A stretch of DNA of 55,689 nucleotides from Alphaproteobacteria bacterium (GTDB lineage: Bacteria > Pseudomonadota > Alphaproteobacteria > Sphingomonadales > Kordiimonadaceae). A program made the translations under genes and the position numbers. The stretch covers positions 1 to 55,689 of the forward strand of contig SBGU01000050.1 of NCBI GenBank assembly GCA_006226495.1, written 5' to 3'. The stretch's first letter is position 1; each line of letters begins with the position of its first letter. Below the pieces are notes generated by a model. It was not told where the DNA came from, did no database searches, and saw nothing but the letters and a program-made list of their open reading frames with translations. Positions 9,030-55,689 of this stretch are shown here, piece after piece.

Positions 9030-9725
9030 TTAAAGCGCGCCGTCGATCGCTTCCTTCAGGGCATCGAGGCCATTGCTGTCCACCCGTTTGCCATTGACAA
9101 ACAGGGTCGGTGTGCCCTGGACATCATATACTTTCTGGGCATTCTGGGTCAGTTCCACCAGATGCTTGTGCATGTTGGTGTCCGACAGGCAGCGGTCGAA
9201 TTCGGTGCGGCTGATGCCGACCCGGCGCGCAAGCGCGGCCAGTTCGTCGATCGGCTTTTCAGACCCGGCCCATTCGCGCTGGCGCGCAAAATAGATCTGC
9301 ATCATCTTCTTGGTACTTTCCATGTCGCCGCAACGCGCCACGGCGGATGCCGCCAGGTCAAGCTGGTTCAGGATATAGTTGCGGTAAACAAAGCGCACCT
9401 TGCCGCTTTCGATATAGTCCTTCTCGATTTCCGGGAACACCGCCTTGTAGAAGGCCGCGCAGTGCGGGCAGGTCAGCGACGCATATTCGATCACTTCCAC
9501 GGGCGCATCGGCGCTGCCATAGACAATGTCACCCCAGGTGCCGGTCTGGCTGACCGCAGGATCAACCGCAACCTGGCTGTCGGCAGCCCGTGGCAGGCCG
9601 TCCATCTGCTTGCCGTCGGCGCTGTCGCCCGCCTTGTCGCCGCCATCACAGGCGGCAAGCGCCAGAAAACCGGCCAGAAGGCCAGCCATACGCATGTTGG
9701 AACCGAATTTCTTGTAGATAGCCAT
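9030..9725 (-). CDS. DsbA-family thiol:disulfide oxidoreductase, putative lipoprotein
   Basis: 231 residues. The N-terminus has a membrane stretch ending in the lipobox LAAC (Cys26), so the protein is probably anchored to the periplasmic side of a membrane. A 40-residue linker leads to a thioredoxin fold with active site C86-P-H-C89 and a cis-proline loop in VQGTPTLFVNG. It belongs to the DSBA-like/BdbD group that oxidises or isomerises periplasmic thiols. ATG 9725 follows TGAGGAC; a GTG four codons earlier is less likely. It is the downstream member of a tandem pair. Alphaproteobacteria often keep such genes between DUF721 and smc. Confidence 0.88.
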   Translation of the reverse strand: MAIYKKFGSNMRMAGLLAGFLALAACDGGDKAGDSADGKQMDGLPRAADSQVAVDPAVSQTGTWGDIVYGSADAPVEVIEYASLTCPHCAAFYKAVFPEIEKDYIESGKVRFVYRNYILNQLDLAASAVARCGDMESTKKMMQIYFARQREWAGSEKPIDELAALARRVGISRTEFDRCLSDTNMHKHLVELTQNAQKVYDVQGTPTLFVNGKRVDSNGLDALKEAIDGAL

Positions 9726-9805
9726 GTCCTCACCCACTAGATATTGTGTTTTACAATGTCAGGCGCTGCCTGACGAGTCAATTCTTGCGCCAGACCGGAC
9801 CAGGC

Positions 9806-10408
9806 TTATTGCCCGCCCTCGATCAATTGTTTCAGGTCTTCAAGCTCGTGCTTCACGGTCGGCACGCCATTGATCACGAGGGTCGGTATGCGTTCGATTT
9901 TATAGAGCTTGATGCCGTCCTGTTTGCTCATCACCAGGGTTTTGGCCAGGTCCTCGTTATCGAGGCAGGCGGCAAACGCCTCCTTGCTGACCCCCGATTT
10001 GGCGGCGATCGCAAAGACGGCTTCATAATAGTTCGGCGACCGTATCCATTGCTGCTGTTCGGCGAACAGTGCCGCGATCATGGTTTTGGTCGCTTCCACG
10101 TCCCCCGTGCAGCGGGACGCCAGCGACGCCACCATGTCATAGGGGTCGCGCACGAAGTTGCGGAACACGAAACGCACCTTGCCGGTGTCGATATATTGTT
10201 TCTTGAATTCGGGGAACACGTCGGTCGAAAAATGCGCACAGTGCGGGCAGGTCAGCGAAGCATATTCGATGATCTCCACCGGCGCCGACACACTGCCATA
10301 GACAATGTCGCCAGACTGGACCGCGGGCGCCGCATCTGTTGCAGATGCAACAGAAACAGGAACCAGAATCGACAGAATTGTTGCTACCTGCAACATGAAA
10401 CGTGTCAT
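9806..10408 (-). CDS. DsbA-family thiol:disulfide oxidoreductase, secreted
   Basis: 200 residues from the ATG behind GGGGGAG. A Sec signal peptide (about 1-23, hydrophobic ILSILVPVSVASA) precedes a thioredoxin domain with C54-P-H-C57 and the cis-proline loop IERIPTLVING. The core around the active site (DIVYGS, APVE, IEYASLTCPHC) is almost the same as in the next gene, so the pair arose by tandem duplication. This copy is soluble and periplasmic, while the other is lipid-anchored. It lies 20 bp after the DUF721 gene in a probable operon. Confidence 0.88.
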   Translation of the reverse strand: MTRFMLQVATILSILVPVSVASATDAAPAVQSGDIVYGSVSAPVEIIEYASLTCPHCAHFSTDVFPEFKKQYIDTGKVRFVFRNFVRDPYDMVASLASRCTGDVEATKTMIAALFAEQQQWIRSPNYYEAVFAIAAKSGVSKEAFAACLDNEDLAKTLVMSKQDGIKLYKIERIPTLVINGVPTVKHELEDLKQLIEGGQ

Positions 10409-10427
10409 ACCAAACTCCCCCAATCGA

Positions 10428-10955
10428 TCACTTGACCTGGCCCTTCGGTTTCGGGCCCAACACATATTCTCCAAGGCTTTTAACCGCTTGGCGCAGCGGG
10501 CTCAACTCCCCCGTACCGGTCAGGGCGTCAAGCTTTGCTTTCTCCGGCGCCGCCAGCGGCTGTTTCGCCATCTGGGCCCGCACAATCTTGCGCGGCAACG
10601 GCCCCTGGACCACCGACATTTTGGCAACCGCGCCATATCCGAAAAAAGCGTTTGTTTTCTCGATGATACGCGGCGCCTTGTGGCTGAGAAGCGGCGCAAA
10701 GGCCGATTCCGTCCTGACCACCAGGGTCGCGCCCATGCGTTCCCCGCGCGGGAAAACCAGCTTCACCGGCACGGTACTGCCGGCCAGTTCCACGCCCACA
10801 ATGTCAGCCCAGCGGGTAATGACCTCGGCCTGCAGGAAGCCGCGCTTGCGCATGGTGCCGGCCAGCAGTTTTCCAACCGCCGCAGATGCGGGGGTGGTCT
10901 TCATGCGCCGGTCGTCGGATTTGCGCGTCTCGGATTTGCGCGGGGGTTCCGCCAT
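10428..10955 (-). CDS. DUF721 (DciA-like) protein
   Basis: 175 residues. The DUF721 core is seen at about 20-110 (VGKLLAGTMRKRGF, then EVITRWADIVG, and a later TESAFAPLLSHKAPRIIEKTNAFFGYGAV). Members related to DciA help load the replicative helicase DnaB in bacteria that lack DnaC. Whether this alphaproteobacterial form has that role is inferred. The lysine/arginine-rich N-terminus and proline-containing C-terminal tail look flexible. It is divergent from mutY and leads the dsbA unit. Confidence 0.82.
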   Translation of the reverse strand: MAEPPRKSETRKSDDRRMKTTPASAAVGKLLAGTMRKRGFLQAEVITRWADIVGVELAGSTVPVKLVFPRGERMGATLVVRTESAFAPLLSHKAPRIIEKTNAFFGYGAVAKMSVVQGPLPRKIVRAQMAKQPLAAPEKAKLDALTGTGELSPLRQAVKSLGEYVLGPKPKGQVK

Positions 10956-11049
10956 GGGGCTTGCTCTATTCTACGCAATGACTATGGTTCAGTGCTATCA
11001 AACGCCCCCCATGGGCACAAGGACAAAGCACCCGCTTCAACGAGCCGTG

Positions 11050-12096
11050 ATGACCAGCCTCGCCGCCGATCTTCTTGCCTGGTACGATGCCAACCGACGC
11101 CGCCTGCCCTGGCGCGCGGAACCGGGCGCGCATGCCGACCCCTATGCCGTGTGGCTGTCGGAAGTGATGCTGCAGCAGACCACGGTCGCGACCGTGAAGG
11201 ATTATTTCGCCCGCTTCATGAAAAAATGGCCGACCGTAACCGCACTGGCCGCAGCACCCCTCGATGATGTGCTGAAGGAATGGGCCGGCCTTGGTTATTA
11301 TGCCCGCGCCCGCAACCTGCATAAATGTGCGACCGTGGTGGCCCGCGATTTTGGCGGCAAATTCCCGGACACCGAAGCCGGCCTCCGGGCCCTGCCCGGC
11401 GTTGGCGACTATACCGCCGCCGCCATTGCCGCCATCGCGTTTGATGTGCCCGCCACGGTGGTTGACGGCAATGTGGAGCGGGTGATCAGCCGCCTCAGGC
11501 GCCTTGAAGAAGAATTGCCGGGTGCCAAAAAATCGATCCGGGCCCTGACCGGCGAGATCACGCCCGACCGACGCCCGGGCGATTTTGCCCAGGCCATGAT
11601 GGACCTTGGTGCCACCGTGTGCACACCCCGCAATCCCAAATGCCTGTTGTGCCCCTGGGCGCGCGCCTGTGCCGCCCGCGCGGCGGGTGATGCCGAACGT
11701 TTCCCGCAGAAAGCGCCAAAGAAAGAAAAACCCACCCGCCGCGCGGTCGCCTTCTGGCTGGTGCATGATGGCCATGTGCTTCTGGAAAGGCGTGCGCCCA
11801 AGGGGCTTCTGGGCGGCATGCCGGGGCTGTATTCAACGCCCTGGACCGAACGGCCCGATTTCCCGGCCAAGGCCGAATGGCTGACGTCGGTACCGAGCGA
11901 CGATTACTGGAAACCGGTTGAGGGGCTGGCCAAACACACCTTTACCCATTTTCATCTGGAAACCCGGCTGGTGTCGGCCAAGGCCGCACAGCGGCTTAAC
12001 CTGGAGAACGGGTTCTGGCATCCGCTGGACCGGCTGGACGATGTCGGCCTGCCGACCGTATTTGCCAAAATGGCGAAACTGGTTTCAGGCCAGTAG
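11050..12096 (+). CDS. mutY: A/G-specific adenine DNA glycosylase
   Basis: 348 residues. The N-terminal helix-hairpin-helix glycosylase has the catalytic Glu in SEVMLQQTTVATV, the hairpin LPGVGDYTAAAIAAIAF and the catalytic Asp in VDGNVERV. The iron-sulphur ligands follow in CTPRNPKCLLCPWARAC. The C-terminal third is the NUDIX-like 8-oxoG recognition domain (RRAVAFWLVHDGHVLLERR). It removes adenine mispaired with 8-oxoguanine. The frame is open upstream with in-frame ATGs at 10978 and 11011; 11050 matches the family's beginning best. It is divergent from DUF721, and the last 12 bp overlap the convergent HutD gene. Confidence 0.95.
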   Translation: MTSLAADLLAWYDANRRRLPWRAEPGAHADPYAVWLSEVMLQQTTVATVKDYFARFMKKWPTVTALAAAPLDDVLKEWAGLGYYARARNLHKCATVVARDFGGKFPDTEAGLRALPGVGDYTAAAIAAIAFDVPATVVDGNVERVISRLRRLEEELPGAKKSIRALTGEITPDRRPGDFAQAMMDLGATVCTPRNPKCLLCPWARACAARAAGDAERFPQKAPKKEKPTRRAVAFWLVHDGHVLLERRAPKGLLGGMPGLYSTPWTERPDFPAKAEWLTSVPSDDYWKPVEGLAKHTFTHFHLETRLVSAKAAQRLNLENGFWHPLDRLDDVGLPTVFAKMAKLVSGQ

Positions 12097-12675
12097 GCGC
12101 ACGGCCACGACCGCAGCCTGCACCGCGGCGGGGCCGGTGGCAGCAAGCAGGCAGTTGGTACCCTTGTCGAACACCAGGGTATCGCCGGTGCGCGCCGCGA
12201 CAAAACGCCCGTCCGGCCACTGCAGGGATGCCGGGCCGAACAGATGCACGGCAATCGGCGCGCCTTTGAGGGCAACCGGCTGCGGCACGGCCCCCAGGGT
12301 CATGACCGCGACATCGGTACGTGCATAACGCCGGTCGGACATCACGTTGAAATCCTTCACCGGGCCACCCAGCAGACGCCCGTAAACCGGCCAGTCGCCT
12401 TCAAACGGCACCGGCGTGAAAGGGTGGCTGAGATCGAGTGTTCCGGCTTCACCGGCATCCAGCACCATGCCCTTGCCTTCGATCAGCATGATCGTGCGGT
12501 CGACATGGGGAAATTTGGAAAACGGGCCGTCAGCGGTGACATCGGCGATGCTGATGCGCCATTTGAAGCCGTCACCCTCGTCTGTTGGCACAGACAGGAT
12601 TTCGGTCGTGCTGCCCTGCCCGTTTTTCCAGGGCATGGCCCGATAGTCGGCCGCTGTCAGGTGATGGAAGCTCAT
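12085..12675 (-). CDS. HutD/Ves family protein
   Basis: 196 residues matching the HutD (DUF886/Ves) bicupin family: an early PWKNGQGSTTEI motif, FKWRISIADVTADGPFSKFPHVDRTIMLIEG-like strands and a later RLLGGPVKDFNVM. Family members are linked to histidine utilisation, or to cold response (Ves), but their activity is undefined. No hut genes are nearby, so a HutD role is not supported by context. It overlaps mutY tail to tail. A 9-bp inverted repeat lies upstream at 12707-12729. Confidence 0.85.
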   Translation of the reverse strand: MSFHHLTAADYRAMPWKNGQGSTTEILSVPTDEGDGFKWRISIADVTADGPFSKFPHVDRTIMLIEGKGMVLDAGEAGTLDLSHPFTPVPFEGDWPVYGRLLGGPVKDFNVMSDRRYARTDVAVMTLGAVPQPVALKGAPIAVHLFGPASLQWPDGRFVAARTGDTLVFDKGTNCLLAATGPAAVQAAVVAVRLLA

Positions 12676-12706
12676 GGCGCAATACTCAACAAAACACAGG
12701 GTCTGT

Positions 12707-12729
12707 CATGGCCCGATGACCGGGCCATG
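12707..12729. repeat. Perfect 9-bp inverted repeat
   Basis: CATGGCCCG (12707-12715) and CGGGCCATG (12721-12729) surround a five-base loop, between the small lysine-rich gene and the HutD gene. It has no T-tract on either strand, so it is a weak terminator at best. It may act on mRNA stability or as a protein site. Confidence 0.5.
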
Positions 12730-12765
12730 GCTTGATTTCAAGGATAAGCGGGAATTAGGGCAGGA

Positions 12766-12879
12766 TTATAGTCCGTAGCCCGGACCGGCCTTCTTGGCAG
12801 CCTTGGCGGCTTTCTTTTCCTTCTTGTCCAGAAGCGGCTTTTTCTTCGCTTCTTTCTTGGTGTTGCGTTCCTTGCTCAT
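12766..12879 (-). CDS. 37-residue lysine-rich small protein
   Basis: A short open frame translating to MSKERNTKKEAKKKPLLDKK followed by EKKAAKAAKKAGPGYGL. An ATG with a good ribosome site (GGAG, eight bases away) and GC-biased third positions support translation. The protein is extremely basic, with about 15 lysines, no hydrophobic core and a glycine/aromatic end. Such composition suits nucleic-acid or ribosome binding, but I recognise no named family. It stands alone between the HutD gene and the ccrM terminator. Confidence 0.7.
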   Translation of the reverse strand: MSKERNTKKEAKKKPLLDKKEKKAAKAAKKAGPGYGL

Positions 12880-13057
12880 CACTTTATCTCCGTGCGGGCC
12901 GGGCACCGCACCATGGGCACCCTACGTCGGCCACAAGTGTCCTCCGCCCGCGCTAATATTGGGCGCAGGACAGCGGAAGACTGTGCTTAAATGGGCACCC
13001 TGTCACGCGGTTTCAGCACACATTAGAAAAGATTGCCGAACGCCTTTGCGTCCGAAG

Positions 13058-13090
13058 AAAACAGGCGCTCCCCGGGCAGAGGAGCGCCTG
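13058..13090 (-). terminator. Intrinsic terminator of ccrM
   Basis: A perfect 10-bp stem, CAGGCGCTCC (13062-13071) with GGAGCGCCTG (13081-13090), is followed on the minus strand by TTTTCTTC. It lies about 40 bp after the ccrM stop. Confidence 0.85.
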
Positions 13091-13130
13091 AACAAAAGCG
13101 CAGACGGGCATCCGCGCTTTCGGAGGTATT

Positions 13131-14378
<1,248 letters not shown>

Positions 14379-14389
14379 TCAGTTGTAAG

Positions 14390-15052
14390 CTATTCTTCAC
14401 TCAGAATCTGGCGAATCGGAGCAAAAGATTTGCGATGATGCGGGCTGACACCCACCAATCTTAGTGCCGCCATATGACGGGGCACACCATATCCTGCGTT
14501 TTGCTCCCATCCGTAGTCGGGATGCTGGAGGGCGAGATTTTTCATCAGCCGGTCGCGAAAAACTTTTGCGACGATACTGGCCGCCGCAATCGACAGCGAG
14601 CGGGCATCGCCCTTCACCAATGTGCGCGTCGGCAGGCCAAGGCCGGGGTCGCGGTTGCCGTCCACAAGGGCCCCAGATGGGCAGGTTTCAAGGCCTTCCA
14701 CCGCTCGCCGCATGGCCAGCATCGCGGCTTCAAGGATGTTGATCTCGTCGATTTCCGCAACCGACGCTTCGGCGATGCACACGGCAAGGGCCTGTTCGTG
14801 AATCAGGTCGAACAGATGTTCGCGTTTTTTTTCGGTCAGTTTCTTGCTGTCATTGAGCCCTACCGGCACCCGGTCGGGGTGCAGGATCACGGCGGCTGCG
14901 ACCACGGGGCCCGCAAGCGGGCCGCGCCCGACCTCATCGACACCACACACGGGGCCTACCACCTCTGCCATCAGGCGGGCTTCCGACGCCCAGTCGGGCC
15001 CGGCGGCGAGATCAAGCCCCGCGGCGGAAAAGAGTGTCTTGTCCTGTTTCAT
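14390..15052 (-). CDS. rnhB: Ribonuclease HII
   Basis: 220 residues. The catalytic start of the fold is [19 protein letters not shown], with the metal-binding pair D39-E40. Further acidic residues occur in the ALVDGNRDP and [18 protein letters not shown] regions. The enzyme cuts RNA in RNA/DNA hybrids and removes misincorporated ribonucleotides. ATG 15052 is preceded by a weak CAGGG. It lies upstream of ccrM in the same direction, a neighbourhood also known in other Alphaproteobacteria. Confidence 0.95.
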
Positions 15053-15121
15053 GCCCTGCCCTGCGACCGTGTATGACCTCGCGCATTAAACAACGGCGCG
15101 GCCGGCCCCGCAATCGCATGC

Positions 15122-15335
15122 AACAGAAAAAGGCGCCACCTTCAGGAAGGGGGCGCCAGAGTGCTTGGGTAGGTTTAGGAGTGGAACGCAGAGCTGTCAC
15201 CCAAAGGCAAACGGGTAAAGCTCCGATACTCGGAACAGAATTGGGAAAGTTGGGGGTTGGTCGGGCCAGGATGGGCTCTTGGGGCTAGGGTCAGGGGTAT
15301 GATCCGCACCCCGGCCCGACCGGAACCTGTCATCA
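15122..15335 (-). ncRNA. Candidate structured small RNA with intrinsic terminator
   Basis: No gene occupies 15053-15523. On the minus strand, in order, I see a 9-bp stem GGTCGGGCC/GGCCCGACC enclosing a C-rich loop with an inner GGGGT/ACCCC stem, a TCCGA-GTA-TCGGA hairpin, a GAGCT...ACCC-loop-GGGT...AGCTC nested stem, and a GGCGCC-based 12-bp hairpin followed by TTTTT. The last element is a proper terminator with no protein gene upstream to serve. The signature sequences of SRP RNA and RNase P RNA were not found. I cannot name a family. The 5' end and promoter are unclear. Confidence 0.4.
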
Positions 15336-15523
15336 CCTTATGCTTTGACGCACAGAACCTGGAGCCGTGGCGATGACTGGCTCAATATGACCGCGACGCT
15401 CAGGATGCGAGCGAAACGCGGGCCAGACGTTCATGCCGCCGGCGGCGACGCCAGGTGCGGGTGGAACGTATCGGCTGGGAACTGGAAAGACCAACACTGG
15501 TCTTGGAGAGAAGTTCGGTAAAC

Positions 15524-15805
15524 ATGGCTTTTATCCTCGCTATAGTTGCCATCGTTGTATTTGTTTTACGTATGGCATTGTCGTTTGCTGTCGTTTTATG
15601 TGCCGTTACCCATTTTATTTGGGTTTGTCTTGCCGGCTACAGGCTTAATGTAGGCATGCACGAACAAAGGTTCAATAGCCCCCGTCCCGCTTTTTGCACG
15701 CTTCATCGCAAAAGCCGCCACAATCCTGTCACGATCCGCAGGAAACCGGGACAACGGCCGATCCGGGACCATTTTGCCGAGCCGCCCCCAATCCCCGCCC
15801 CATAA
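15524..15805 (+). CDS. Possible small membrane protein
   Basis: 93 residues if real. A hydrophobic segment of about 40 residues (MAFILAIVAIVVFVLRMALS, then FAVVLCAVTHFIWVCLAGY) would make one or two membrane helices, followed by a basic, proline-rich tail. A GGAGAG lies 14 bases before the ATG, which is rather far. A bidirectional terminator follows directly at 15812-15848, which favours a transcript here. Codon bias is weaker than in neighbours. I recognise no family. Confidence 0.3.
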   Translation: MAFILAIVAIVVFVLRMALSFAVVLCAVTHFIWVCLAGYRLNVGMHEQRFNSPRPAFCTLHRKSRHNPVTIRRKPGQRPIRDHFAEPPPIPAP

Positions 15806-46209: not shown

Positions 46210-48018
46210 TCAGGCGCTCACATGATCATTGATCACCGCTAGGAACGCCTCGGCATACCGTTCCAGCTTGGCGCCCCCTACCCCCGGCAGCAGCGCGAAG
46301 CCGTATTTGTCGGTCGGGCGGTCGGCGGCCATGGCGGCGAGCGTGCTGTCATGGAAGATCACATAGGGCGGTACACCCTGTTCGCGGGCGAGCGCGGCGC
46401 GGCAGGCGCGCAGGGCGCCGAACAGGCTTTCGTCAGCTTCTGCGACCACAGCGCTGGTGCGTTTGGCCTTGGCCGATTTGGCTTTCTTCGCGGCCGGGTC
46501 GTGCCTGAGCATCACCTGGCGTTCGCCCTTGAGGACCGCGCGGGCCCCGGGCCCCAGATGCAGGCCGCCATGGCCGGCGATATCGACCGTCAGCAGATTC
46601 TGGGCCACCAATTGGCGCACGAAGGATTGCCATTCGCGCCGGTCATGTTCCTTGCCGATGCCATAGGTGGACACCGTATCGTGCCCGAACTTGCGGATGC
46701 GTTCGGTATTGCCGCCCAGAAGTACGTCGATCACGTGCCCTGCCCCGAACATCTGGTCGGTGCGGTACACACAGGACATCAGCTTCTGCGCCGCGACCGT
46801 GCCGTCGAACACCGCCGGCGGATTGAGGCAGGTGTCGCAGTTGCCGCAGGGTTCGTGATGGTTTTCGCCAAAATAGGACAGCAGAATCTGGCGTCGGCAA
46901 CTTGCGCTTTCGCAGAAACCGATCAGGGCATCCAGCTTCTGGCGTTCGATGCGTTTCTGGGCCTCTGGCGCACCCGAATTTTCGGTGAACTGGCGGATTT
47001 TGGCGATATCCTTGGTGCCATACACCAGGAAGGCTTCCGCCGGCAGGCCGTCGCGCCCGGCGCGGCCGGTTTCCTGATAATAGGCCTCCAGGCTTTTGGG
47101 CAGGTCCATATGGGCGACAAACCGCACATCGGGTTTGTCGATGCCCATGCCGAAGGCGATGGTCGCGGTCATGACCATGGCGTCTTCCTTGAGGAACCGG
47201 TCCTGGTTCGCGGCGCGCACGGCACGGTCGAGCCCCGCATGGTACGGCAGGCTTTCGATGCCCTGCTGGTTCAGCCACACGGACGTTTCCTCGACCGCCT
47301 GCCGGCTGAGGCAATAGACGATACCCGACTGGCCGGCATGTTCGCCCTTGATGAAATTCAGGATTTGCGTGCGGGCATTGTCCTTGGGGGCAATCAGGTA
47401 GCGGATGTTGGGCCTGTCGAAACCCGCGATGAACACATCGTCGGGGCGAAGCGCCAGGCGTTCGACGATATCGGCGCGTGTGGGTTCGTCCGCCGTGGCC
47501 GTGAGCGCAAGGCGCGGCACGGCGGGGTAGCGCGTGGCAAGGAGTTCAAGCTGGCGGTATTCAGGCCGGAAATCATGCCCCCACTGGGACACACAGTGGG
47601 CTTCGTCGATGGCGAACAGCGCCACACGCAGTTCGTCCAACAGCGCCAGGAACCGGTCGGTCAGCAGCCGTTCGGGCGCCACATACACAAGGTCCAGTTC
47701 ACCCGCCCGCAAGGCATTTTCAGCCGCCACAAGGTCGGCGAATTCCATGGCGCTGTTGATGGCGGCGGCGCGCACGCCAAGCTGGCGGAGCGCGGTCACC
47801 TGATCCTGCATCAAGGCAATCAGCGGCGAGACGACCACCGCGACACCGGGCAGCGCCAAGGCCGGCACCTGATAGCACAGCGACTTGCCGCCGCCCGTGG
47901 GCATGACCAGAAGGCCGCTGCCACCGGCGACAACATGGTGGATAACCTCTTCCTGCCGCCCCCGGAACGCGGGGAAGCCGAAAACCGATTTCAGGATCTG
48001 TTCGGGACTTTGGGACAT
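46210..48018 (-). CDS. recQ: ATP-dependent DNA helicase RecQ
   Basis: 602 residues. Walker A is in MPTGGGKSLCYQ, the DEAH box in FAIDEAHCVSQWGHDFRPEY, and motif VI in QETGRAGRDGLPA. The zinc-binding RQC cysteines follow in CRRQILLSYFG and EPCGNCDTC, and an HRDC domain closes the protein (ALLPGVGGAKLERYAEAFLAVI). It unwinds recombination and replication-fork intermediates. It is divergent from the sulfotransferase gene. A coding-like tail follows in frame after the stop. Confidence 0.96.
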   Translation of the reverse strand: MSQSPEQILKSVFGFPAFRGRQEEVIHHVVAGGSGLLVMPTGGGKSLCYQVPALALPGVAVVVSPLIALMQDQVTALRQLGVRAAAINSAMEFADLVAAENALRAGELDLVYVAPERLLTDRFLALLDELRVALFAIDEAHCVSQWGHDFRPEYRQLELLATRYPAVPRLALTATADEPTRADIVERLALRPDDVFIAGFDRPNIRYLIAPKDNARTQILNFIKGEHAGQSGIVYCLSRQAVEETSVWLNQQGIESLPYHAGLDRAVRAANQDRFLKEDAMVMTATIAFGMGIDKPDVRFVAHMDLPKSLEAYYQETGRAGRDGLPAEAFLVYGTKDIAKIRQFTENSGAPEAQKRIERQKLDALIGFCESASCRRQILLSYFGENHHEPCGNCDTCLNPPAVFDGTVAAQKLMSCVYRTDQMFGAGHVIDVLLGGNTERIRKFGHDTVSTYGIGKEHDRREWQSFVRQLVAQNLLTVDIAGHGGLHLGPGARAVLKGERQVMLRHDPAAKKAKSAKAKRTSAVVAEADESLFGALRACRAALAREQGVPPYVIFHDSTLAAMAADRPTDKYGFALLPGVGGAKLERYAEAFLAVINDHVSA

Positions 48019-48156
48019 GCCCTCCTCTATAGGGGATTCGCCCGCCCAGTAAAGGCCGGCTTTCAGGCCGCCTTCATATATCCCGATAAAACAACGCGTT
48101 GCAGCGACCGGGTAGCCCTGCTAGGCTCCCTTCAAATCAGCGATCAGGGGGCGAAC

Positions 48157-49011
48157 ATGGCAACACCAACACTGCATTTCATCTCGGGCCTGCCCCGTTC
48201 GGGTTCGACCCTGCTTGCCGCGCTTCTGCGCCAGAACCCGCGCTTTCATGCCGCGATGTCGAGCGCGCTTGCCCCCCTGGTGACCGCCAACCTGGATATC
48301 ATGAGTTCAGGCAGCGAAGTGTCCCTGCTTCTGGAGGAGGCACAGCGCCCTGCGATCCTGCGGGCCCTCGTGGACACCTTCTGCGCCACCACCACCGACC
48401 GCGAGGTGTTTTTCGACACCAACCGCGTCTGGTGCGCCAAAATGGCGCTTCTGGACCGGCTGTCGCCCGGTTCGAAGGTCATTGCCTGCGTGCGCGACGT
48501 ACCCTGGATCATGGACAGTATCGAGCGCCTGTTTCGCAAGAACCCCTATGAAAACACCCGGCTGTGGACCACGGCCCAGGAACGCGCGACGGTTTACAGC
48601 CGGGTCGAGGCCCTGGCGCACCATAACCGGCTGGTGGGCTACAGTTGGACCGCCCTCAAGGAAGCCTTCTATGGCGAGCATGGCGAAAAACTGATCATCG
48701 TCGATTATGAAGTACTGACTCGCGCGCCCGAGAAAACACTGAAGCTTCTGTACCGGTTCGTCGGCGAGCCCTGGTTCGAAGGCCACGATTTCGACAATGT
48801 CGAATATAATGCCCAGAAGTTCGACCAGGCCCTCGGGCTGTCCGGCCTGCATCAGGTGCGCCCCAAGGTCAAGTTTGAACCCCGCAAGACGGTCCTGCCG
48901 CCTGACCTGTTCAGAAAATATGAAGGCATGGATTTCTGGCGCGACAACGCGGGCAGCCGCGCGAACCTGATCGCGCCGAAGAAAAAGGTCGCCGCGCCGT
49001 CGGTTGCATAA
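48157..49011 (+). CDS. Sulfotransferase family protein
   Basis: 284 residues. The N-terminal PAPS 5'-phosphosulfate loop is FISGLPRSGSTLLAALLRQ (about 8-26). The 3'-phosphate region is near VIACVRDVPWIMDSIERLF, and the typical C-terminal VDYEVLTRAPEKTLKLLYRFVGEPW follows. It would transfer sulfate from PAPS to an unknown acceptor such as a sugar or peptide. The frame is open far upstream only because it runs antisense to recQ; the ATG with AGGGGG at 48157 is the real start. It precedes the giant surface protein gene, separated by 412 bp. Confidence 0.88.
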   Translation: MATPTLHFISGLPRSGSTLLAALLRQNPRFHAAMSSALAPLVTANLDIMSSGSEVSLLLEEAQRPAILRALVDTFCATTTDREVFFDTNRVWCAKMALLDRLSPGSKVIACVRDVPWIMDSIERLFRKNPYENTRLWTTAQERATVYSRVEALAHHNRLVGYSWTALKEAFYGEHGEKLIIVDYEVLTRAPEKTLKLLYRFVGEPWFEGHDFDNVEYNAQKFDQALGLSGLHQVRPKVKFEPRKTVLPPDLFRKYEGMDFWRDNAGSRANLIAPKKKVAAPSVA

Positions 49012-49423: not shown

Positions 49424-52400
49424 ATGACGCTGCAAGACCGCAAGAAGTTCTATTTTGCCAGCACATCTTTGTCGTCAATCACCCCCCTAGCCCTTGAGCC
49501 GCGGTTCATGTTTGACGCCGCCGGCGCCGCAACCGGTGTCGAGGCCGCGCAGGATGCCGCCGCGCATGCCGAAGCCGACAAGGCCGTTCATGGCCGGGGT
49601 TATAACACCGCAGCTCCCCACGATACGGGCGGCAGCAACGCAAGCGACCTTGCCGAGCTGATTGCCGCGGCAAACGGCCCCGCGACACCGCGCGAGCGTA
49701 CAGATGTCGTGGTCGTCGACACCACGGTCAGCGGCTATCAGGACCTGGTCGCCGGCCTTGCGCCCGGTACGGACGTTGTCCTGATTGACGGCAGCCACGA
49801 AGGGCTGGCCGACCTTGCCGCCAGCCTGGCGGGCCGTACCGATATCGATTCCTTATATATTGTGTCTCACGGCGACACGGGCCTGCTGTCTTTCGGAACA
49901 GACGTCCTGACCGGCGAGAATGTGAACCAGTTTGCCGATACGCTGGCGGCCATTGGTGCCACCTTGTCTGCGGACGGGGATATCCTGCTGTACGGCTGCC
50001 GCGTGGGTGAAAGCGGCCAGGGCCTTGATCTCGTCAATGCCATTGCGGCCCTGACCGGCGCCGATGTGGCAGCGTCGGACGACACGACCGGCGCTGGTAC
50101 GCTGGGCGGCGACTGGGACCTGGAGATCACCACCGGCAACATTGAAAGCGACCAGCCTTTCAGTAACACCGCACTGGCCGATTTTTCCGGCATTCTGGCC
50201 TATACGGGCACATTCGATTTTGAATCGAGCACCGGCTACGATAGCGGCCTTGAAGCCGTGACCCAGACCCTGGGCGGCTATACCCTTGTTGTGGACGGCG
50301 CCGACCATAATACGACGATTTCCAGCTACGACGGCTATACACACGGCAACTCGGTCTATACGACAACCACCTATGTCTATGGCCAGCCTGTCCCGACCGA
50401 AAGCCAGTTGACGATTTCCTTCACGAACGGCGAAACCTTCGATATTTCGTCGCTGTTCATCTATAACTGGAATGGTCAGGGTAATACCGAAACATTCACC
50501 ATCACATCGGACAAGGGCGATACATTCACCACAAGTGCGCTCGATGACCTTGCTGGCGCCTCATTCGACCTCGATGGCTTCACTGGCATCACGCAGCTCT
50601 ATATCACGTCGGACGGCGCCTTCAACATCTGGGTCGACGACTTCGCAATTGCCAACGTCACCCCCGCCAGCAGCGGCAACACCGCCCCGGAAGTCAGCGG
50701 CGCACCATCCAGCGTGACCGTGACCGAAGATGTGGAAACCGCCATCAACCTGTCGAACGTCGTACTGTCTGACGACGATGCCGACACCCTGACCGTAACC
50801 CTGTCCGTGGATGCCGGCACCCTGTCGGCGGCCTCGAGCGGTAGTATCACGATCGGCGGCACGAGCACGGCCCTGACCCTGTCGGGCACAGCAAGTGCCA
50901 TCAACACCTATCTCGATACGACCTCGAACATCACCTATACAAGCGCATCGAACGCAAACGGCACCGCCGCCGCGACCCTGACCATTACGCCGAACGACGG
51001 CACCGAGGACGGCACCGCCGCCACGGTCAGCATCAATATCACGGCGGTCAACGATGCGCCGACATTCTCGGGCCTTGATGGCACACCGTCCTATACGGAA
51101 GGTGACGCGGCGGTCACCCTTGACAGCAATGTCACCATCACCGACATCGAACTGGATGCCGCCAACGATTATACCGGTGCATCCTTGACCATTGCGCGCA
51201 ATGGCGGCGCCAATGCGGACGACAGTTTCAGCCTGGACACCGGGAACGGGGCGACCTTTACGGTCAGCGGCTCGAACATCCTGTCCAATGGCGACATCTT
51301 TGCTACCTTCAGCAGTTCAAATGGCACCCTGACCATCGACTTCACCGGTGCGGGCGCAACCCCCACCGGCGCCCTTGTGGACGACCTGCTGCAGCATATC
51401 CAGTATTCCAACAGCAGCACGTCACCTGATGCGAGTGTCCAGCTTGACTGGTCGTTCAATGACGGGGAAGACAATGGTACAGGTTCGACCACTGTTTCCG
51501 TCACCGATGTCAACGGCCAGCCGACCCTTTCCGGCCTGACACCGCTTGTCTATGTCGAGGACGATGGTGTGGTGTTCCTGGCGCCCGATGCCAGCCTCAG
51601 CGACGTTGAAACGGATTATGACGGCGCCACCCTGGTTATCGGCGGCGTCGTGTCCGGCGAAACCGTGACCCTGAACAACGCAGGCACCGGTTCTGGCCAG
51701 GTTGGCTATTCGGGCGGCACCATCACCTATGAAGGTGTTACGGTCGGCACCGCCACCGGTGGCAGCGGCAGCGATTTCAGCATTACCTTCAATGCCAGCG
51801 CAACTGCCGCCTCGGTCCAGGCCGTGCTGCAGAATATCACCTATGTCAACACCGCCGAAACATCGAGCGCCGGCCGTGCTCTGAGCGTAACCTTCACCGA
51901 CGCGGACGGTGATAGCCCTGCCACAAGTGTGAGCTTCAGTGTCCTGAGCAACGGCAGCGATCCCCTGAACGGGCTGAGCTACGGGGCCTATGCCAGCCCG
52001 GCCTTCGCCGACCTGGATGACGACGGCGACCTGGACATGATTGTCGGCATCAACGCCGGCACCTTCGTCTATTACCGCAACGAGGGCACGGATACGGCGC
52101 CCAGCTTCGTGAAATATAACCCCGGCAACGCCACCAACCCCATGGGCAGCACCGACATCGGCAATTATTCCACCACTGCGCTGGTGGATATCGATTATGA
52201 CGGCGACTATGACCTGTTTGTTGGCCGGAACGACGGCACGATCCAGTTCTACCGCAATGACGGCACGGCCAGCGCTCCGTCTTTTGTGGCAGACTCGGAT
52301 AATAACCCGCTCTCCGGGGTGGATGTGGGCACCTACAGCACCATCACGTTTGCCGATATCGACGGCGATGGCGACCAGGACGCCTTTATCGGCGGCTTCA

Positions 52401-55400
52401 ACACCATTCAATATTACCGCAACATCGGCGACGCCGCCAATCCGAGCTTCAGCATCGTTGACAGCGGCAGCCCCATCCCCAGCCTGTCCAACGGATATCA
52501 GAGCCCCACATTCGGCGATTTCGATGCCGACGGCGACCTGGACCTGGTGGTCGGCAGGGGCAATGGCTCCGTCGCCTTTTATGAGAATACCGGCACGGGA
52601 AGTTCGCCCACCTTCACCAGTGGCACCAACCCCTTCTCGTCTGCAAGCCTCAGCAGCCTTGTACGCCCCGCTGTCGCGGACCTGGACGGCGACGGCGATC
52701 TGGAAGTGGTGTTCGGCCGTTCTTCCGGCGGTTTTGCCGTGTATGAAAACAACAGTGTGGTGGACGGGATTGCGGTCACCATTTACGAACGCAACGATGC
52801 GCCGACCTTCAGCGCCACGGGGGCTACACCCAGCTTCACCGAAGGCGACAGTGCGGTCAGCCTGTTCTCCGGCACCAGCGCCAGCACCGTTGAAAGCGGC
52901 CAGTCCTTCGAGGGTCTTACCCTCACTGTTACGAACGTTGACGGCACCGACGCTGAAACCCTGTCGATCGACGGGACCAGTATCGACCTGACAGACAGCA
53001 ATTCGGGCACCACCGACACCAACAGCCTGACCTACAGTGTATCGGTCAGCGGCGGCACCGCCACTGTGACCCTGACCGGCGGCAGCCTTGATGCGTCGGC
53101 ACTGGCGACCCTGGTTGATGCGATCAGCTACAGGAATACCAGCGACGATCCCACTGCATCGGGCACCACCCGGGTGATCACCATCACCGAAGTGCAGGAC
53201 GACGGCGCGAATGCGCATGGCGGCGACGGTACGGCTACGCCCAATACCACCGCCACGGTCACCATCACCCCGGTGAATGACCCCGCCACCTTCAGCATGG
53301 ACGACATCAGCTATACCGAAGGCGATGGTACGGTCTTCCTGGATGCGAATGTTGTCTTCACCGATGTGGACGGCGGTTTCGACGGCGCCACCCTGGTGAT
53401 TACCGGCCTTCTGAGCGAAGACACGGTTGCCGTGAACAACGAGGGCACAGCCAGCGGCGAGATCGGCGTGTCGGGCAGCGACATCACCTATGGCGGCACG
53501 ACAATCGCGACCTTCTCGGGTGGCGCCGGCACCAGCCTGACCATCACCTTCAACAGCAGCGCCACGCAGGCAGCCGTTGAAGCGTTGATGCAGAACCTGA
53601 CCTATGCCAACAGTTCCGATGAACCCACAGCCAGCCGCAGCCTGTCGATCACCTACACGGATGCCGACGGTGTGGAGGCCAGCACCGGCCCATCCTGGAC
53701 CAGCGCCAGCAGCAACCCGATCGGGGCGAGCGGCTTCAACGTAAGCATTTACCCCAGCATCGCGAGCGGCGACTTTGACAATGATGGCGATATCGACATC
53801 ATCGCGTCTGACGACCAAGGGGAGTTCTATTATTTCCGGAACGACGGGACTGCCCTCGTGCCTTCGTTTACGCGCATCGACAACGCTTCCGGCAACCCGC
53901 TGCAGGGCATCAGCTTCGTGACCCCCGAAGGGTCCCCGAGCGGCGGCGGGACCCTGGACGTAACCACCCTGGCCGTCGCCGACATTGATAATGACGGCGA
54001 CCTGGACATCTTTGTCGGGCTGGATAACTACACGGTTGCCTTCCTGCGCAACGACGGTACCGCGTCCGCACCTTCGTTCACCGAGGTCAGCGGCAGCAGC
54101 AACCCGCTGAACGCCGCGACGTTGGGCAAATACAGCGCGGTCGGTTTTGTCGATATCGATGACGATGGCGACCTCGATGCCCTGATCGGTTCGCACAACG
54201 GCATGACCTTCTGGCTTAATGGCGGCACGGCGTCGAGCCCGAGCTTCAGCCAGGTCACCGACGATTCCGCCAACCCCTTCAGCGCGAGCACCTTCGCAGG
54301 CGCCGAATATGCCGCGCCGACCTTCGCCGATTTCGATAATGACGGCGATTTTGACCTGCTGATGAGCCAAATTGACGGCACCGTGCACTATTATGAAAAT
54401 ACCGGAACGGCAAGCAGCGCTGTCTTTGTCGAACGCACGGGGTCCGACCTTCCGTTCACGGTGGCACCCAGCGGTTTAGGCTTCAACCGGAACACGGTCG
54501 GCGATTTCGACAATGACGGCGACCTGGACCTCGTGGTTACAAATTCAGCCGGCACCTTCGAGTGGTACGAAAACACCCCCACGACCAGTCTCAGTGTGGA
54601 TGTGACGGTCACCGCAGTGAACGATGTTCCGACCCTGACGGCAACAGCGGCCGACCCGTCCTTCACCGAAGGCGACAGCGCCGTGGCGCTGTTCACGGAC
54701 ACGTCGGCCTCGACGGTCGAAAGCGGCCAGTTTATTTCGGGCATGGTGCTGACCGTGACCAACGTGGACGGCACGTCGGACGAAAGCATCACGTTCAACG
54801 GCGCCACCATCAGCCTGGCCACCGGGGCCGGCTTCACCGACGACTTCAACTATAGTGTCTCGGTATCAGGCGGCGTTGCCACCGTCACCTTCTCGAACGC
54901 ATCCGTCGACACGACAAGCCTGGCCAGCCTGGTCAACGGCATGACCTATGCCAACACGAGCGACGACCCGACCTCGACCGGTTCGACCCGTGTGATCACC
55001 ATCACGAGCCTGACCGACAACGGTGCAGACGGCACGGCCGCCCTGAGTATTGCCTCGACGGTTTCCGTGACGGCCGTCAACGACGCCCCGTCGGGCAGCA
55101 CCGTGCCCGCGACCGCAACCTTCACCGAAGACACCGCGGGCAACCTGGACCTGTCGGGCCTGACCCTCGCGGACGCCGACAGCGGCACAAGCGACGTCAC
55201 CCTGACCCTGACCGCAACCAACGGCACCATGGCCGCCAGCGATGGCGGCGGCGTGGTCATCGCGGGTTCCGGCACCAGCGAAATCACGCTCACCGGCACG
55301 ATTTCCGAGATCAACACCTACCTGGATACGGCATCCAACATCCAGTACACCGGTGCCGCGAACGCCAATGGTACGGGTGCAGACAGCATTGCCCTTACCC

Positions 55401-55689
55401 TCAATGACGGCGGCAACACCGGCACGGGCGGCGGCAGCGATGTCGACCTCGGCACCATCAGCATCGACATCACATCAGTCAATGACGTGCCCACACTGTC
55501 CGGCCTGACTGCGATCGCCTATACCGAAGGCGACGGCACGGTATTCCTGGATACCGACGTCAGCTTCTCAGACGTTGACGAGAACTTCGACGGCGGCACC
55601 CTTGTGGTGTCGGGCGTCCTGGCTGAAGAAACCCTTTCGATCAATGATGCCGGCACCGATGCAGGCCAGATCGGCTTTGACGGCACCAA
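49424..55689 (+). CDS. Giant DUF4347 / cadherin-like / FG-GAP repeat protein (partial, runs off the right edge)
   Basis: 2088 codons are in the window, without a stop. The N-terminus has no Sec signal but carries LEPRFMFDAAGAA (24-36), like other giant LEPR-type proteins. DUF4347 spans about 93-260 (LYIVSHGDTGLLSFG, LLYGCRVGESGQG). From about 430 come Ig/cadherin-like repeats, each ending in a VNDAP-type motif. Two sets of five FG-GAP/VCBS repeats with DxDxDGDxD calcium loops start at 863, 922, 978, 1032, 1086 and at 1450, 1520, 1577, 1636, 1694. It is probably a calcium-dependent adhesin exported by a type I system, whose signal would lie beyond the edge. It is acidic and rich in T, S, G, D and A, with very few lysines after the N-terminus. 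Confidence 0.9.
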   Translation, partial: MTLQDRKKFYFASTSLSSITPLALEPRFMFDAAGAATGVEAAQDAAAHAEADKAVHGRGYNTAAPHDTGGSNASDLAELIAAANGPATPRERTDVVVVDTTVSGYQDLVAGLAPGTDVVLIDGSHEGLADLAASLAGRTDIDSLYIVSHGDTGLLSFGTDVLTGENVNQFADTLAAIGATLSADGDILLYGCRVGESGQGLDLVNAIAALTGADVAASDDTTGAGTLGGDWDLEITTGNIESDQPFSNTALADFSGILAYTGTFDFESSTGYDSGLEAVTQTLGGYTLVVDGADHNTTISSYDGYTHGNSVYTTTTYVYGQPVPTESQLTISFTNGETFDISSLFIYNWNGQGNTETFTITSDKGDTFTTSALDDLAGASFDLDGFTGITQLYITSDGAFNIWVDDFAIANVTPASSGNTAPEVSGAPSSVTVTEDVETAINLSNVVLSDDDADTLTVTLSVDAGTLSAASSGSITIGGTSTALTLSGTASAINTYLDTTSNITYTSASNANGTAAATLTITPNDGTEDGTAATVSINITAVNDAPTFSGLDGTPSYTEGDAAVTLDSNVTITDIELDAANDYTGASLTIARNGGANADDSFSLDTGNGATFTVSGSNILSNGDIFATFSSSNGTLTIDFTGAGATPTGALVDDLLQHIQYSNSSTSPDASVQLDWSFNDGEDNGTGSTTVSVTDVNGQPTLSGLTPLVYVEDDGVVFLAPDASLSDVETDYDGATLVIGGVVSGETVTLNNAGTGSGQVGYSGGTITYEGVTVGTATGGSGSDFSITFNASATAASVQAVLQNITYVNTAETSSAGRALSVTFTDADGDSPATSVSFSVLSNGSDPLNGLSYGAYASPAFADLDDDGDLDMIVGINAGTFVYYRNEGTDTAPSFVKYNPGNATNPMGSTDIGNYSTTALVDIDYDGDYDLFVGRNDGTIQFYRNDGTASAPSFVADSDNNPLSGVDVGTYSTITFADIDGDGDQDAFIGGFNTIQYYRNIGDAANPSFSIVDSGSPIPSLSNGYQSPTFGDFDADGDLDLVVGRGNGSVAFYENTGTGSSPTFTSGTNPFSSASLSSLVRPAVADLDGDGDLEVVFGRSSGGFAVYENNSVVDGIAVTIYERNDAPTFSATGATPSFTEGDSAVSLFSGTSASTVESGQSFEGLTLTVTNVDGTDAETLSIDGTSIDLTDSNSGTTDTNSLTYSVSVSGGTATVTLTGGSLDASALATLVDAISYRNTSDDPTASGTTRVITITEVQDDGANAHGGDGTATPNTTATVTITPVNDPATFSMDDISYTEGDGTVFLDANVVFTDVDGGFDGATLVITGLLSEDTVAVNNEGTASGEIGVSGSDITYGGTTIATFSGGAGTSLTITFNSSATQAAVEALMQNLTYANSSDEPTASRSLSITYTDADGVEASTGPSWTSASSNPIGASGFNVSIYPSIASGDFDNDGDIDIIASDDQGEFYYFRNDGTALVPSFTRIDNASGNPLQGISFVTPEGSPSGGGTLDVTTLAVADIDNDGDLDIFVGLDNYTVAFLRNDGTASAPSFTEVSGSSNPLNAATLGKYSAVGFVDIDDDGDLDALIGSHNGMTFWLNGGTASSPSFSQVTDDSANPFSASTFAGAEYAAPTFADFDNDGDFDLLMSQIDGTVHYYENTGTASSAVFVERTGSDLPFTVAPSGLGFNRNTVGDFDNDGDLDLVVTNSAGTFEWYENTPTTSLSVDVTVTAVNDVPTLTATAADPSFTEGDSAVALFTDTSASTVESGQFISGMVLTVTNVDGTSDESITFNGATISLATGAGFTDDFNYSVSVSGGVATVTFSNASVDTTSLASLVNGMTYANTSDDPTSTGSTRVITITSLTDNGADGTAALSIASTVSVTAVNDAPSGSTVPATATFTEDTAGNLDLSGLTLADADSGTSDVTLTLTATNGTMAASDGGGVVIAGSGTSEITLTGTISEINTYLDTASNIQYTGAANANGTGADSIALTLNDGGNTGTGGGSDVDLGTISIDITSVNDVPTLSGLTAIAYTEGDGTVFLDTDVSFSDVDENFDGGTLVVSGVLAEETLSINDAGTDAGQIGFDGT
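51544..55080 (+). repeat. Super-repeat inside the giant gene: Ig-like B, FG-GAP x5, Ig-like A
   Basis: Unit B (YTEGDGTVFLD...FDGATLVI type) begins near 51544, 53311 and 55519; the FG-GAP sets begin near 51960 and 53736; unit A (SFTEGDSAV...TSASTVESGQ type) begins near 52846 and 54664. The B-FG-A block thus occurs twice with a period of about 1.77-1.82 kb, and a third B starts at the edge. Confidence 0.75.

What the first reader, a model, noticed from the sequence alone, without database searches (positions are those of the whole stretch)
49424..55689. Giant modular protein with calcium-loop propellers nested in cadherin-like repeats
An open frame of at least 2088 codons runs off the window. 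Each set of five DxDxDGDxD repeats interrupts an Ig-like unit just before its last strand: the upstream part stops at TDADGDSPATSVSFSVLSN, and the missing strand with the ERNDAP-type ending appears after the fifth blade. This implies a small propeller inserted into a stalk domain, repeated twice, which I do not know as a described architecture.
Basis: partly seen in the sequence, partly recalled or inferred. Interest (0 to 1): 0.7.

Follow-up and report, generated by a model that had tools for sequence, protein, structure and literature searches.

The report
Five-bladed propellers nested in stalk domains
A giant bacterial surface protein carries small calcium-loop propellers that interrupt its stalk domains just before their last strand, which would hold the propellers out sideways; side display of this kind is known from other adhesins, but with different guest domains and a different cut point.

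Summary
The frame at 49424-55687 runs off contig C3; the gene very probably continues on contig C45 (at least 5,863 residues). It has three five-blade sets: two in the window, one on C45. Each interrupts an Ig-like unit before its last strand: a profile of uninterrupted units stops short before the propeller and is completed by the segment after it in 10 of 11 modules tested. One correction: 'SVSFSVLSNGSDPL' is not stalk but the propeller's own closing strand.

The arrangement recurs: the same Ig type in other families, a cadherin domain at another loop, and, with weaker support, a Big_13-type unit. Elsewhere such sets sit between complete domains.

AlphaFold2 predicts five blades but does not place the completing strand confidently, so the structural test is open. 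Split Ig-like domains that project other guests are published (PMC10865825, PMC12077191), cut after the first strand in the two cases read. Best reading: a giant adhesin that holds five-bladed VCBS propellers sideways from split stalk domains; ligand unknown. New variant of a known kind.

The parts
49424..55687 (+). Open frame, 2,088 codons, 5' part of the giant gene; runs off the contig
49493..49516 (+). N-terminal LEPRFMFD motif (name recalled; the NCBIfam scan did not report a LEPR-XLL model at E<=0.1)
49706..50197 (+). DUF4347 domain (PF14252), residues 95-258
51062..51526 (+). Uninterrupted Ig-like unit before module 1 (residues 547-701)
   Evidence: sequence
51527..51925 (+). Module 1: split Ig-like unit, strands up to F (residues 702-834)
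51926..52756 (+). Module 1: five-blade propeller insert with N-terminal closing strand (residues 835-1111)
52757..52816 (+). Module 1: completing (G) strand of the split unit (residues 1112-1131)
52817..53290 (+). Uninterrupted Ig-like unit between modules 1 and 2 (residues 1132-1289)
   Evidence: sequence
53291..53686 (+). Module 2: split Ig-like unit, strands up to F (residues 1290-1421)
53687..54580 (+). Module 2: five-blade propeller insert (residues 1422-1719)
54581..54643 (+). Module 2: completing (G) strand (residues 1720-1740)
54644..55102 (+). Uninterrupted Ig-like unit after module 2 (residues 1741-1893)
   Evidence: sequence
55496..55687 (+). Start of module 3's split unit; the rest is probably on contig C45 (L002:1-1131)

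Best explanation
This is the 5' part of a giant exported surface protein (DUF4347 N-terminus, long Ig/cadherin-like stalk), probably an adhesin. In three of its stalk units the last hairpin carries a five-bladed VCBS/FG-GAP propeller. The propeller closes on itself by 'velcro': its first strand serves as the outer strand of blade 5. Its two ends therefore lie side by side and fit into a hairpin of the host domain. The stalk domain closes with its last strand after the propeller. The result would be calcium-stabilised propeller heads hung sideways from the stalk as ligand-binding or interaction modules. Shown by sequence: the frame, five blades per set, the conserved Asp loops, the homologous closing strand, the incomplete stalk unit before each set and its completing segment after it. 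Predicted: the five-blade strand order. Inferred: continuation on C45, ring closure, strand pairing across the insert, Ca2+ binding, sideways display, ligand binding, adhesion, export by the downstream genes.
For: Each of 20 blades (4 modules of this genome) has the loop D-x-D-x-D-G-D-x-D/E; the first strand before blade 1 aligns with the strand that starts the other blades. Split test with a profile of 13 uninterrupted units: 11 modules tested; in 10 the post-propeller 22 residues complete the profile (+3.9 to +15.7 bits), and 0 of 200 windows drawn from that module's own propeller reach this score. E-INS-i alignment places the last strands of 3 of 3 uninterrupted units under the post-propeller strand. 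The same-genus protein of G005 alternates interrupted units (374, 370, 376 residues, then a fourth) with three 83-residue uninterrupted units. In G180 (two modules) and G148 (one) a Pfam cadherin domain is split at position 55-57 of 93: 21.2-27.7 bits without and 35.9-43.3 bits with the piece after the propeller (cut-off 28.8), 3 of 3. AlphaFold2 gives the strand order of five four-stranded blades in both models, mostly pLDDT 86-95 in module 1 and 78-92 in most of module 2; Foldseek matches are VCBS/integrin-like and other propellers. Same-genus G011 has a DUF4347 gene followed by the same kind of gene set; its 3,223-codon frame lacks the Asp loops and module 1.
Against: Both AlphaFold2 models leave the completing strand at pLDDT 28-45, the closing strand is only at about 73 (module 1) and 52 (module 2), and no coordinates were available to see pairing or ring closure. 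One of 11 modules (G018 contig C4) fails the split test (-0.5 bits; 127 of 200 windows as high). For the G005 sets a three-sequence profile does not support the completing strand: 105-197 of 200 windows score as high; with Pfam Big_13 the gain is only 1.0 to 6.4 bits, set 1 stays under the cut-off, and an uninterrupted unit given as control itself reaches only position 94 of 102. A two-sequence cadherin profile let 2, 4 and 13 of 200 windows score as high, and the Pfam tests had no window control. Three of four MAFFT strategies do not place the last strand after the propeller, nor do two runs with longer rows. The Trp of the loop linked with sugar binding in PVL and tachylectin is absent (0 of 20 blades), so a lectin function has no motif support. 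No binding, secretion or localisation data exist here. C3 and C45 share no exact end overlap.
Confidence: 0.7

Rival explanations
1. Beads on a string: the propellers are independent domains between complete Ig-like domains, and the strand after the propeller is a linker or begins the next domain.
For: This arrangement exists for similar five-blade sets elsewhere: L032 and L033 place them between complete Calx-beta-like units, L159 after a complete Ig-like unit, and L027 at the N-terminus (read by eye). AlphaFold2 does not place the completing strand confidently. One module of 11 fails the split test.
Against: The profile of uninterrupted units stops 20-42 positions short before the propeller and is completed by the segment after it in 10 of 11 modules. 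Cadherin scores cross Pfam's cut-off only with the post-propeller piece, 3 of 3. G005 alternates 83-residue units with units longer by 287-293 residues.
Confidence: 0.15
2. Structural spacers: the propellers are split-domain guests but bind no ligand; they stiffen, space or bulk up the stalk, or help folding after secretion when calcium is met.
For: The Asp loops are conserved in 20 of 20 blades, whereas the sugar-pocket Trp is absent. A same-genus relative lacks the Asp loops altogether.
Against: Split Ig-like domains of RTX adhesins carry known or putative ligand-binding guests in the cases read (PMC12077191, PMC10865825; passages). A lateral guest is a poor stiffener (inference). PMC8023676 describes beta-propellers as mostly recognition sites.
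Confidence: 0.25
3. Assembly or repeat artefact: mis-assembly of repeats created the interrupted units.
For: The contig breaks inside a third copy of the module, as repetitive genes often cause.
Against: The copies are only 39-48% identical to module 1, the window's copies read in one frame, and the same architecture is found in G018, G014, G701, G444 and Pelagimonas varians.
Confidence: 0.02

Closest known systems
Split Ig-like domains of RTX adhesins (V. cholerae FrhA, A. hydrophila AhLap, M. primoryensis MpIBP; PMC10865825 and PMC12077191, passages read)
   Same: A stalk Ig-like domain, discontinuous in sequence, carries a guest domain whose two ends emerge side by side; the guest is held out sideways.
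   Different: Guests there are sugar-binding, PA14, peptide-binding, RTX-roll and vWFA domains. In FrhA (12 residues, then the guest, then 106 residues) and in the AhLap RTX-roll case the cut follows the first strand; here the cut precedes the last strand. The gene here has no RTX match at its C-terminal end and no ABC transporter found beside it.
VCBS / FG-GAP propeller superfamily (PF13517; Pereira and Lupas, PMC8023676, parts 1-2 of 3 read)
   Same: Pfam FG-GAP_3 matches, DxDxDG loop between strands A and B, company of Ig-like domains; Foldseek hits include CRTAC1, PVL-type lectins, TcB, KICSTOR and BBSome chains.
   Different: Five blades rather than the seven of the VCBS members named in that paper; no GW motif in the D-A loop; nested in a host domain.
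BapP of Pseudoalteromonas tunicata (PMC12153261, passages read)
   Same: AlphaFold-predicted five-bladed propeller plus cadherin/BIg-like stalk in a calcium-dependent adhesin.
   Different: There the propeller is a single N-terminal domain (226 residues), followed by the stalk domains.
Tachylectin-2 (five-bladed lectin; from PMC8023676)
   Same: Five blades; placed in the same VCBS supercluster.
   Different: Tachylectin-like propellers lack the Asp-rich loop and have the Trp-containing pocket motifs; here it is the reverse.
DDxP proteins that grow by module insertion (PMC7730722, passages read)
   Same: Giant repeat proteins in which modules are gained at boundary motifs; 'empty' relatives exist.
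   Different: Inserted modules there are whole repeats with DDxP ends; 'propeller', 'FG-GAP' and 'VCBS' do not occur in the text.

Membership tests
VCBS / FG-GAP propeller (PF13517) | Profile match over the curated cut-off | tested here: met
   143.1 bits against 26.9
VCBS / FG-GAP propeller (PF13517) | DxDxDG loop between strands A and B | tested here: met
   20 of 20 blades of four modules
VCBS / FG-GAP propeller (PF13517) | GW motif in the D-A loop (not universal according to PMC8023676) | tested here: not met
   Trp in the 20-residue stretch before the loop: 0 of 20 blades
VCBS / FG-GAP propeller (PF13517) | Closed propeller of four-stranded blades | tested here: inconclusive
   Predicted strand order d, (a b c d) four times, a b c in both models and Foldseek matches to propellers; no coordinates to see ring closure
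Split Ig-like domain of RTX adhesins | Ig-like domain discontinuous in sequence around a guest domain | tested here: inconclusive
   Supported by profile test in 10 of 11 modules; AlphaFold2 does not place the completing strand
Split Ig-like domain of RTX adhesins | Cut after the first strand, bulk of the domain after the guest (FrhA, AhLap RTX roll) | tested here: not met
   Here the bulk precedes and one strand follows the guest
Split Ig-like domain of RTX adhesins | Guest ends lie side by side | tested here: inconclusive
   Inferred from the closing strand aligned; no coordinates to measure
Split Ig-like domain of RTX adhesins | Guest binds a ligand | not testable with these tools
   Needs binding assays
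RTX adhesin exported by type I secretion | RTX nonapeptide repeats near the C-terminus | tested here: not met
   No HemolysinCabind reported for the C45 frame at E<=0.01; the separate protein on C25 has them (4.2e-18)
RTX adhesin exported by type I secretion | ABC transporter beside the gene | tested here: not met
   Downstream are OEP, two HlyD and an M50-HlyD fusion; the genome's four PF00664 matches, one of them under the cut-off, lie on contigs C41, C42, C26 and C37
Alpha-integrin-like propeller | Seven blades | tested here: not met
   Five blades

The most novel reading that the evidence does not exclude
A self-closing five-bladed VCBS propeller acts as a portable plug-in. It has entered three kinds of stalk domain (a tandem-repeat Ig unit and a Big_13-type unit at the last hairpin, a cadherin domain at a middle loop), in several families of the phylum, giving a general way to hang sideways heads on giant surface proteins, with the cut mirrored relative to the known split adhesin domains.
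Probability: 0.5. Interest if true: 0.62.

Novelty: new variant of a known kind. Interest (0 to 1): 0.5.

Why it matters
Split domains are used to spot the ligand-binding heads of giant adhesins (PMC12077191). If VCBS propellers are such heads, many 'FG-GAP repeat' proteins of unknown role gain a testable function, and host domains that profile searches report as truncated can be recognised as split. The module also suggests why this class favours five blades: a self-closed ring with adjacent ends can enter a hairpin without breaking the host fold (inference).

Tried and rejected
AlphaFold2 was meant to be decisive. Both jobs gave well-scored blades but a completing strand at pLDDT 28-45; the second job (module 2 plus next unit) was worse overall (mean pLDDT 69). 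VIA-align was not available. A three-sequence profile for the G005 Ig type did not support its last strand; the curated Big_13 profile gave small gains, and its control unit reached only position 94 of 102. A two-sequence cadherin profile was weak (2, 4 and 13 of 200 windows as high), so I used Pfam's own. A lectin reading was considered and not adopted because the Trp motif is absent. Viral contigs: 4 loci, not followed up; the one printed in the survey (L136) is a four-blade set.

Rows dropped before counts. The 13-unit profile took units from loci L110, L112, L113, L114, L119, L120, L123 with a score over 35, plus three set by hand (L066, two of L046). Two units cut off by the locus end (L119, L128) were left out, and units of L109, L111, L118, L122, L125, L126 that lack the usual ending were not used. 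The L113 and L119 copies of one unit overlap, so about 12 of the 13 are distinct. From the first 32-row structure alignment I dropped five rows, including the misaligned L066 and two window Ig rows, before the job. In one search, sets were made distinct by their first 60 residues only, and some are cut by locus ends.

Papers. Ten searches were made, all used; absence from print is claimed only for those terms and that library. DUF4347 (4 papers), LEPR-XLL (2) and M50/HlyD/TolC/giant protein/cadherin/adhesin (18) were seen as listings only. 'DUF4347' with 'FG-GAP', the four-term search FG-GAP/cadherin/adhesin/propeller, and 'split Ig-like' with 'propeller' found no papers. In the global alignment with G011 the gaps around module 1 are scattered by chance matches; I read the empty site from the flanks; module 3's site was not resolved. 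On re-checking I lowered the best explanation from 0.72 to 0.70 and the novel case from 0.55 to 0.50, because of the Big_13 control.
Full report
What is there. The frame starts at ATG 49424 and is open for 2,088 codons to the end of the window, which is the end of contig C3. Pfam gives DUF4347 (residues 95-258, 2.7e-52), FG-GAP_3 in nine stretches (3.8e-42), FG-GAP, and a weak Cadherin_4 match under its cut-off. Two sets of five DxDxDGDxD-type loops lie at residues 863-1094 and 1450-1702.

The rest of the gene. Contig C45 begins inside a 3,775-codon frame. Its first residues (VTYGGVTIGTATGG...) continue the kind of unit that C3 breaks off (GQIGFDGT). It holds a third five-blade set at once, then a long stalk, and stops at 11328. 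The contig ends have no exact overlap, so the join is inferred. It is supported by G011, a same-genus genome: a 3,223-codon open frame with a DUF4347 domain near its start and a similar C-terminal end (ALLAHKPPAA against ALMQHRPPAA) is followed by four frames on the same strand. The last of these is the M50-HlyD fusion, 62% identical to that of C45. The three between have end sequences like those of the OEP and two HlyD proteins of C45; I matched these by eye, not by Pfam. On C45 the same places hold OEP, HlyD, HlyD and M50-HlyD by Pfam. The M50-HlyD protein was found in 3 of 29 genomes searched by handle: G000, G011 and, at 33% identity and far from its DUF4347 gene, G025. Together the two pieces give at least 5,863 residues. 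I found no ABC transporter here: the genome's four PF00664 matches, one under the cut-off, are on other contigs. The C45 frame has no RTX match.

Where the propeller starts and ends. Aligning the 20 blades of the four modules of this genome (two in the window, one on C45, one in a separate protein on contig C25) shows that the stretch before blade 1 (for example SVSFSVLSNGSDPLNG) is like the stretch that starts the other blades (PSFVADSDNNPLSG), while blade 5 is followed directly by the post-propeller strand. That is the pattern of a propeller closed by its own first strand. The inserts are 277 and 298 residues long (835-1111 and 1422-1719). All 20 loops keep D-x-D-x-D-G-D-x-(D/E).

Is the stalk unit really split? 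I built a profile from 13 uninterrupted units of related Ig type (about 12 distinct, see Tried and rejected). They come from other loci, but two are from the Pelagimonas contig that also holds one tested module, one of them in the same frame. Eleven interrupted modules were scored: four of this genome (the C45 one lacks its first half), two each of G014 and G018, one each of Pelagimonas varians, G701 and G444. Before the propeller the match stops at model position 104-126 of 146. With the 22 residues after the propeller it reaches 144-146 in 10 of 11, gaining 3.9 to 15.7 bits, and 0 of 200 windows from the module's own propeller reach that score. The exception is G018 contig C4 (-0.5 bits, 127 of 200 windows as high). 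In G444 the match before the propeller is weak (6.5 bits). Of four alignment strategies, only the one made for long internal gaps (E-INS-i) puts the last strands of the three uninterrupted units under the post-propeller strand; two further runs with longer rows did not.

Other host domains. In G180 and G148 (other families of the same class) the host is a cadherin domain and the cut lies elsewhere: Pfam Cadherin scores 27.5, 21.2 and 27.7 bits up to position 55-57 of 93, and 35.9, 43.3 and 36.8 bits up to 77-81 with the piece after the propeller (cut-off 28.8). A weak home-made profile let 2, 4 and 13 of 200 control windows score as high. In G005 (same genus) four five-blade sets sit in one long frame. 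Interrupted units of 374, 370 and 376 residues, and a fourth, alternate with three uninterrupted units of exactly 83 residues. The length pattern is clear, the sequence support is not: a three-sequence profile is inconclusive (105-197 of 200 windows as high), and Pfam Big_13 runs to position 90-91 of 102 before the insert and to 100-102 with the piece after it, with gains of 2.0, 6.4, 1.0 and 3.2 bits, while an uninterrupted unit reaches only 94. In contrast, L032 and L033 carry such sets between complete Calx-beta-like units, L027 at the N-terminus and L159 after a complete Ig-like unit (read by eye). Nesting is therefore a feature of some proteins, not of the propeller as such.

How common. 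With module 1 as query, 7 of 59 relatives match at 1e-10 (these include partial and propeller-only matches). With the four-row module alignment, 3 of 385 genomes of the class at 1e-30, 7 of 296 of the order at 1e-20 and 5 of 398 of the phylum at 1e-25. The own genome is counted each time, and only a few candidates per genome were scored in the last three searches, so these are lower bounds. Besides the own genome, matches read and judged split at the same place: G018 and G014 (two modules each), G701, G444, and one module of Pelagimonas varians (L046, four blades). Of 135 sets of four or more blades among all loci held, 44 have exactly five, 30 have four, 19 have seven, 15 have ten.

Structure. 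AlphaFold2 on module 1 (27-row alignment, no row showing an uninterrupted unit with its last strand): mean pLDDT 83.3; strands in the order d, then a-b-c-d four times, then a-b-c, blades mostly 86-95 (lowest ten-residue block 77); closing strand about 73; post-propeller strand 416-422 assigned E but pLDDT 28-41. On module 2 plus the next unit: mean 69.0, same strand order, most blade blocks 78-92 (a loop at 48), closing strand about 52, post-propeller strand 434-442 assigned E, pLDDT about 31-45. No coordinates were supplied, so I cannot say what the strand pairs with or whether the ring closes. Foldseek with model 1 finds CRTAC1 (2.4e-8), PVL-type lectins, TcB, KICSTOR and BBSome chains, with low TM-scores. 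By sequence the alignment finds CRTAC1 and integrin alpha-4 (three distinct sequences). The Ig unit finds no convincing solved relative: two antibody light chains at E 0.054 and 0.67.

Gain and loss. G011's protein runs directly from the unit like residues 547-701 into the unit like 1132-1289 (STTVSITAVNDAPTLTATAADPGFTEGG). The whole of module 1, split unit and propeller together, is absent, and a 601-residue stretch covering module 2 and about one more unit is absent too; module 3's site was not resolved. The modules seem to come and go as one unit.

Mechanism proposed. The chain is exported, probably by the downstream OEP/HlyD/M50-HlyD set; that route is inferred and unusual in lacking an ABC partner nearby. 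Outside, the Asp loops bind calcium and the propellers close. Because each propeller's two ends lie together, it fits into the hairpin before the last strand of its stalk unit and hangs sideways. Three heads per molecule would give multivalent contact. What they bind is unknown; the Trp-based sugar pocket of PVL and tachylectin is not there.

Known and new. Split Ig-like domains that project ligand-binding domains are described for RTX adhesins (PMC10865825 and PMC12077191, passages read). In FrhA 12 residues precede the guest and 106 follow. The word 'propeller' does not occur in PMC12077191, and the listing counts none in PMC10865825. A five-bladed propeller at the N-terminus of a calcium-dependent adhesin is described (BapP, PMC12153261, passages read). 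VCBS propellers with Ig-like companions are described (PMC8023676, parts 1-2 of 3 read). A propeller as guest of a split stalk domain, with the cut before the last strand, did not turn up in my ten paper searches of open-licence papers. I therefore call it a new variant of a known kind.

Noticed in passing
L002 (contig C45) 11368-17214; L140 (G011) 9723-15659: Export-like gene set beside DUF4347 giants: outer-membrane efflux protein, two HlyD-type adaptors, M50 peptidase-HlyD fusion (Pfam on C45; by eye and one search in G011), no ABC transporter found nearby.
   Followed up: partly
L003 12077-19507 (-), contig C25: A second giant protein of the same genome with one split five-blade module and RTX repeats at its end, about 1.2 kb from a gene that looks like a TonB-dependent receptor (by eye).
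   Followed up: partly
L004 2665-4335 (-), contig C58; L148 (G010): An ordinary FG-GAP protein (556 codons) next to a TonB-dependent-receptor-like and a FecR-like gene (named by eye); a similar protein occurs in G010.
   Followed up: no
window 48148-49011 (+): Sulfotransferase family gene (PF13469, 1.2e-16) directly upstream of the giant gene; the frames upstream in G011 look different.
   Followed up: partly
L046 9083-12313 (Pelagimonas varians): The split module tested here has four blades rather than five, and a second four-blade set lies in the same frame; whether a four-blade ring closes is unknown.
   Followed up: no
L025-L104: Blade numbers seem to cluster: sets of about 55 residues per blade often come in fives or tens, sets of about 50 residues per blade in sevens or fourteens; many exceptions, no statistics done.
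   Followed up: partly
window 51422-54388 (-) and 46351-49011 (+): Very long open frames (988 and 886 codons) antisense to, or reaching across, real genes; taken as chance frames of GC-rich coding DNA (not tested).
   Followed up: no
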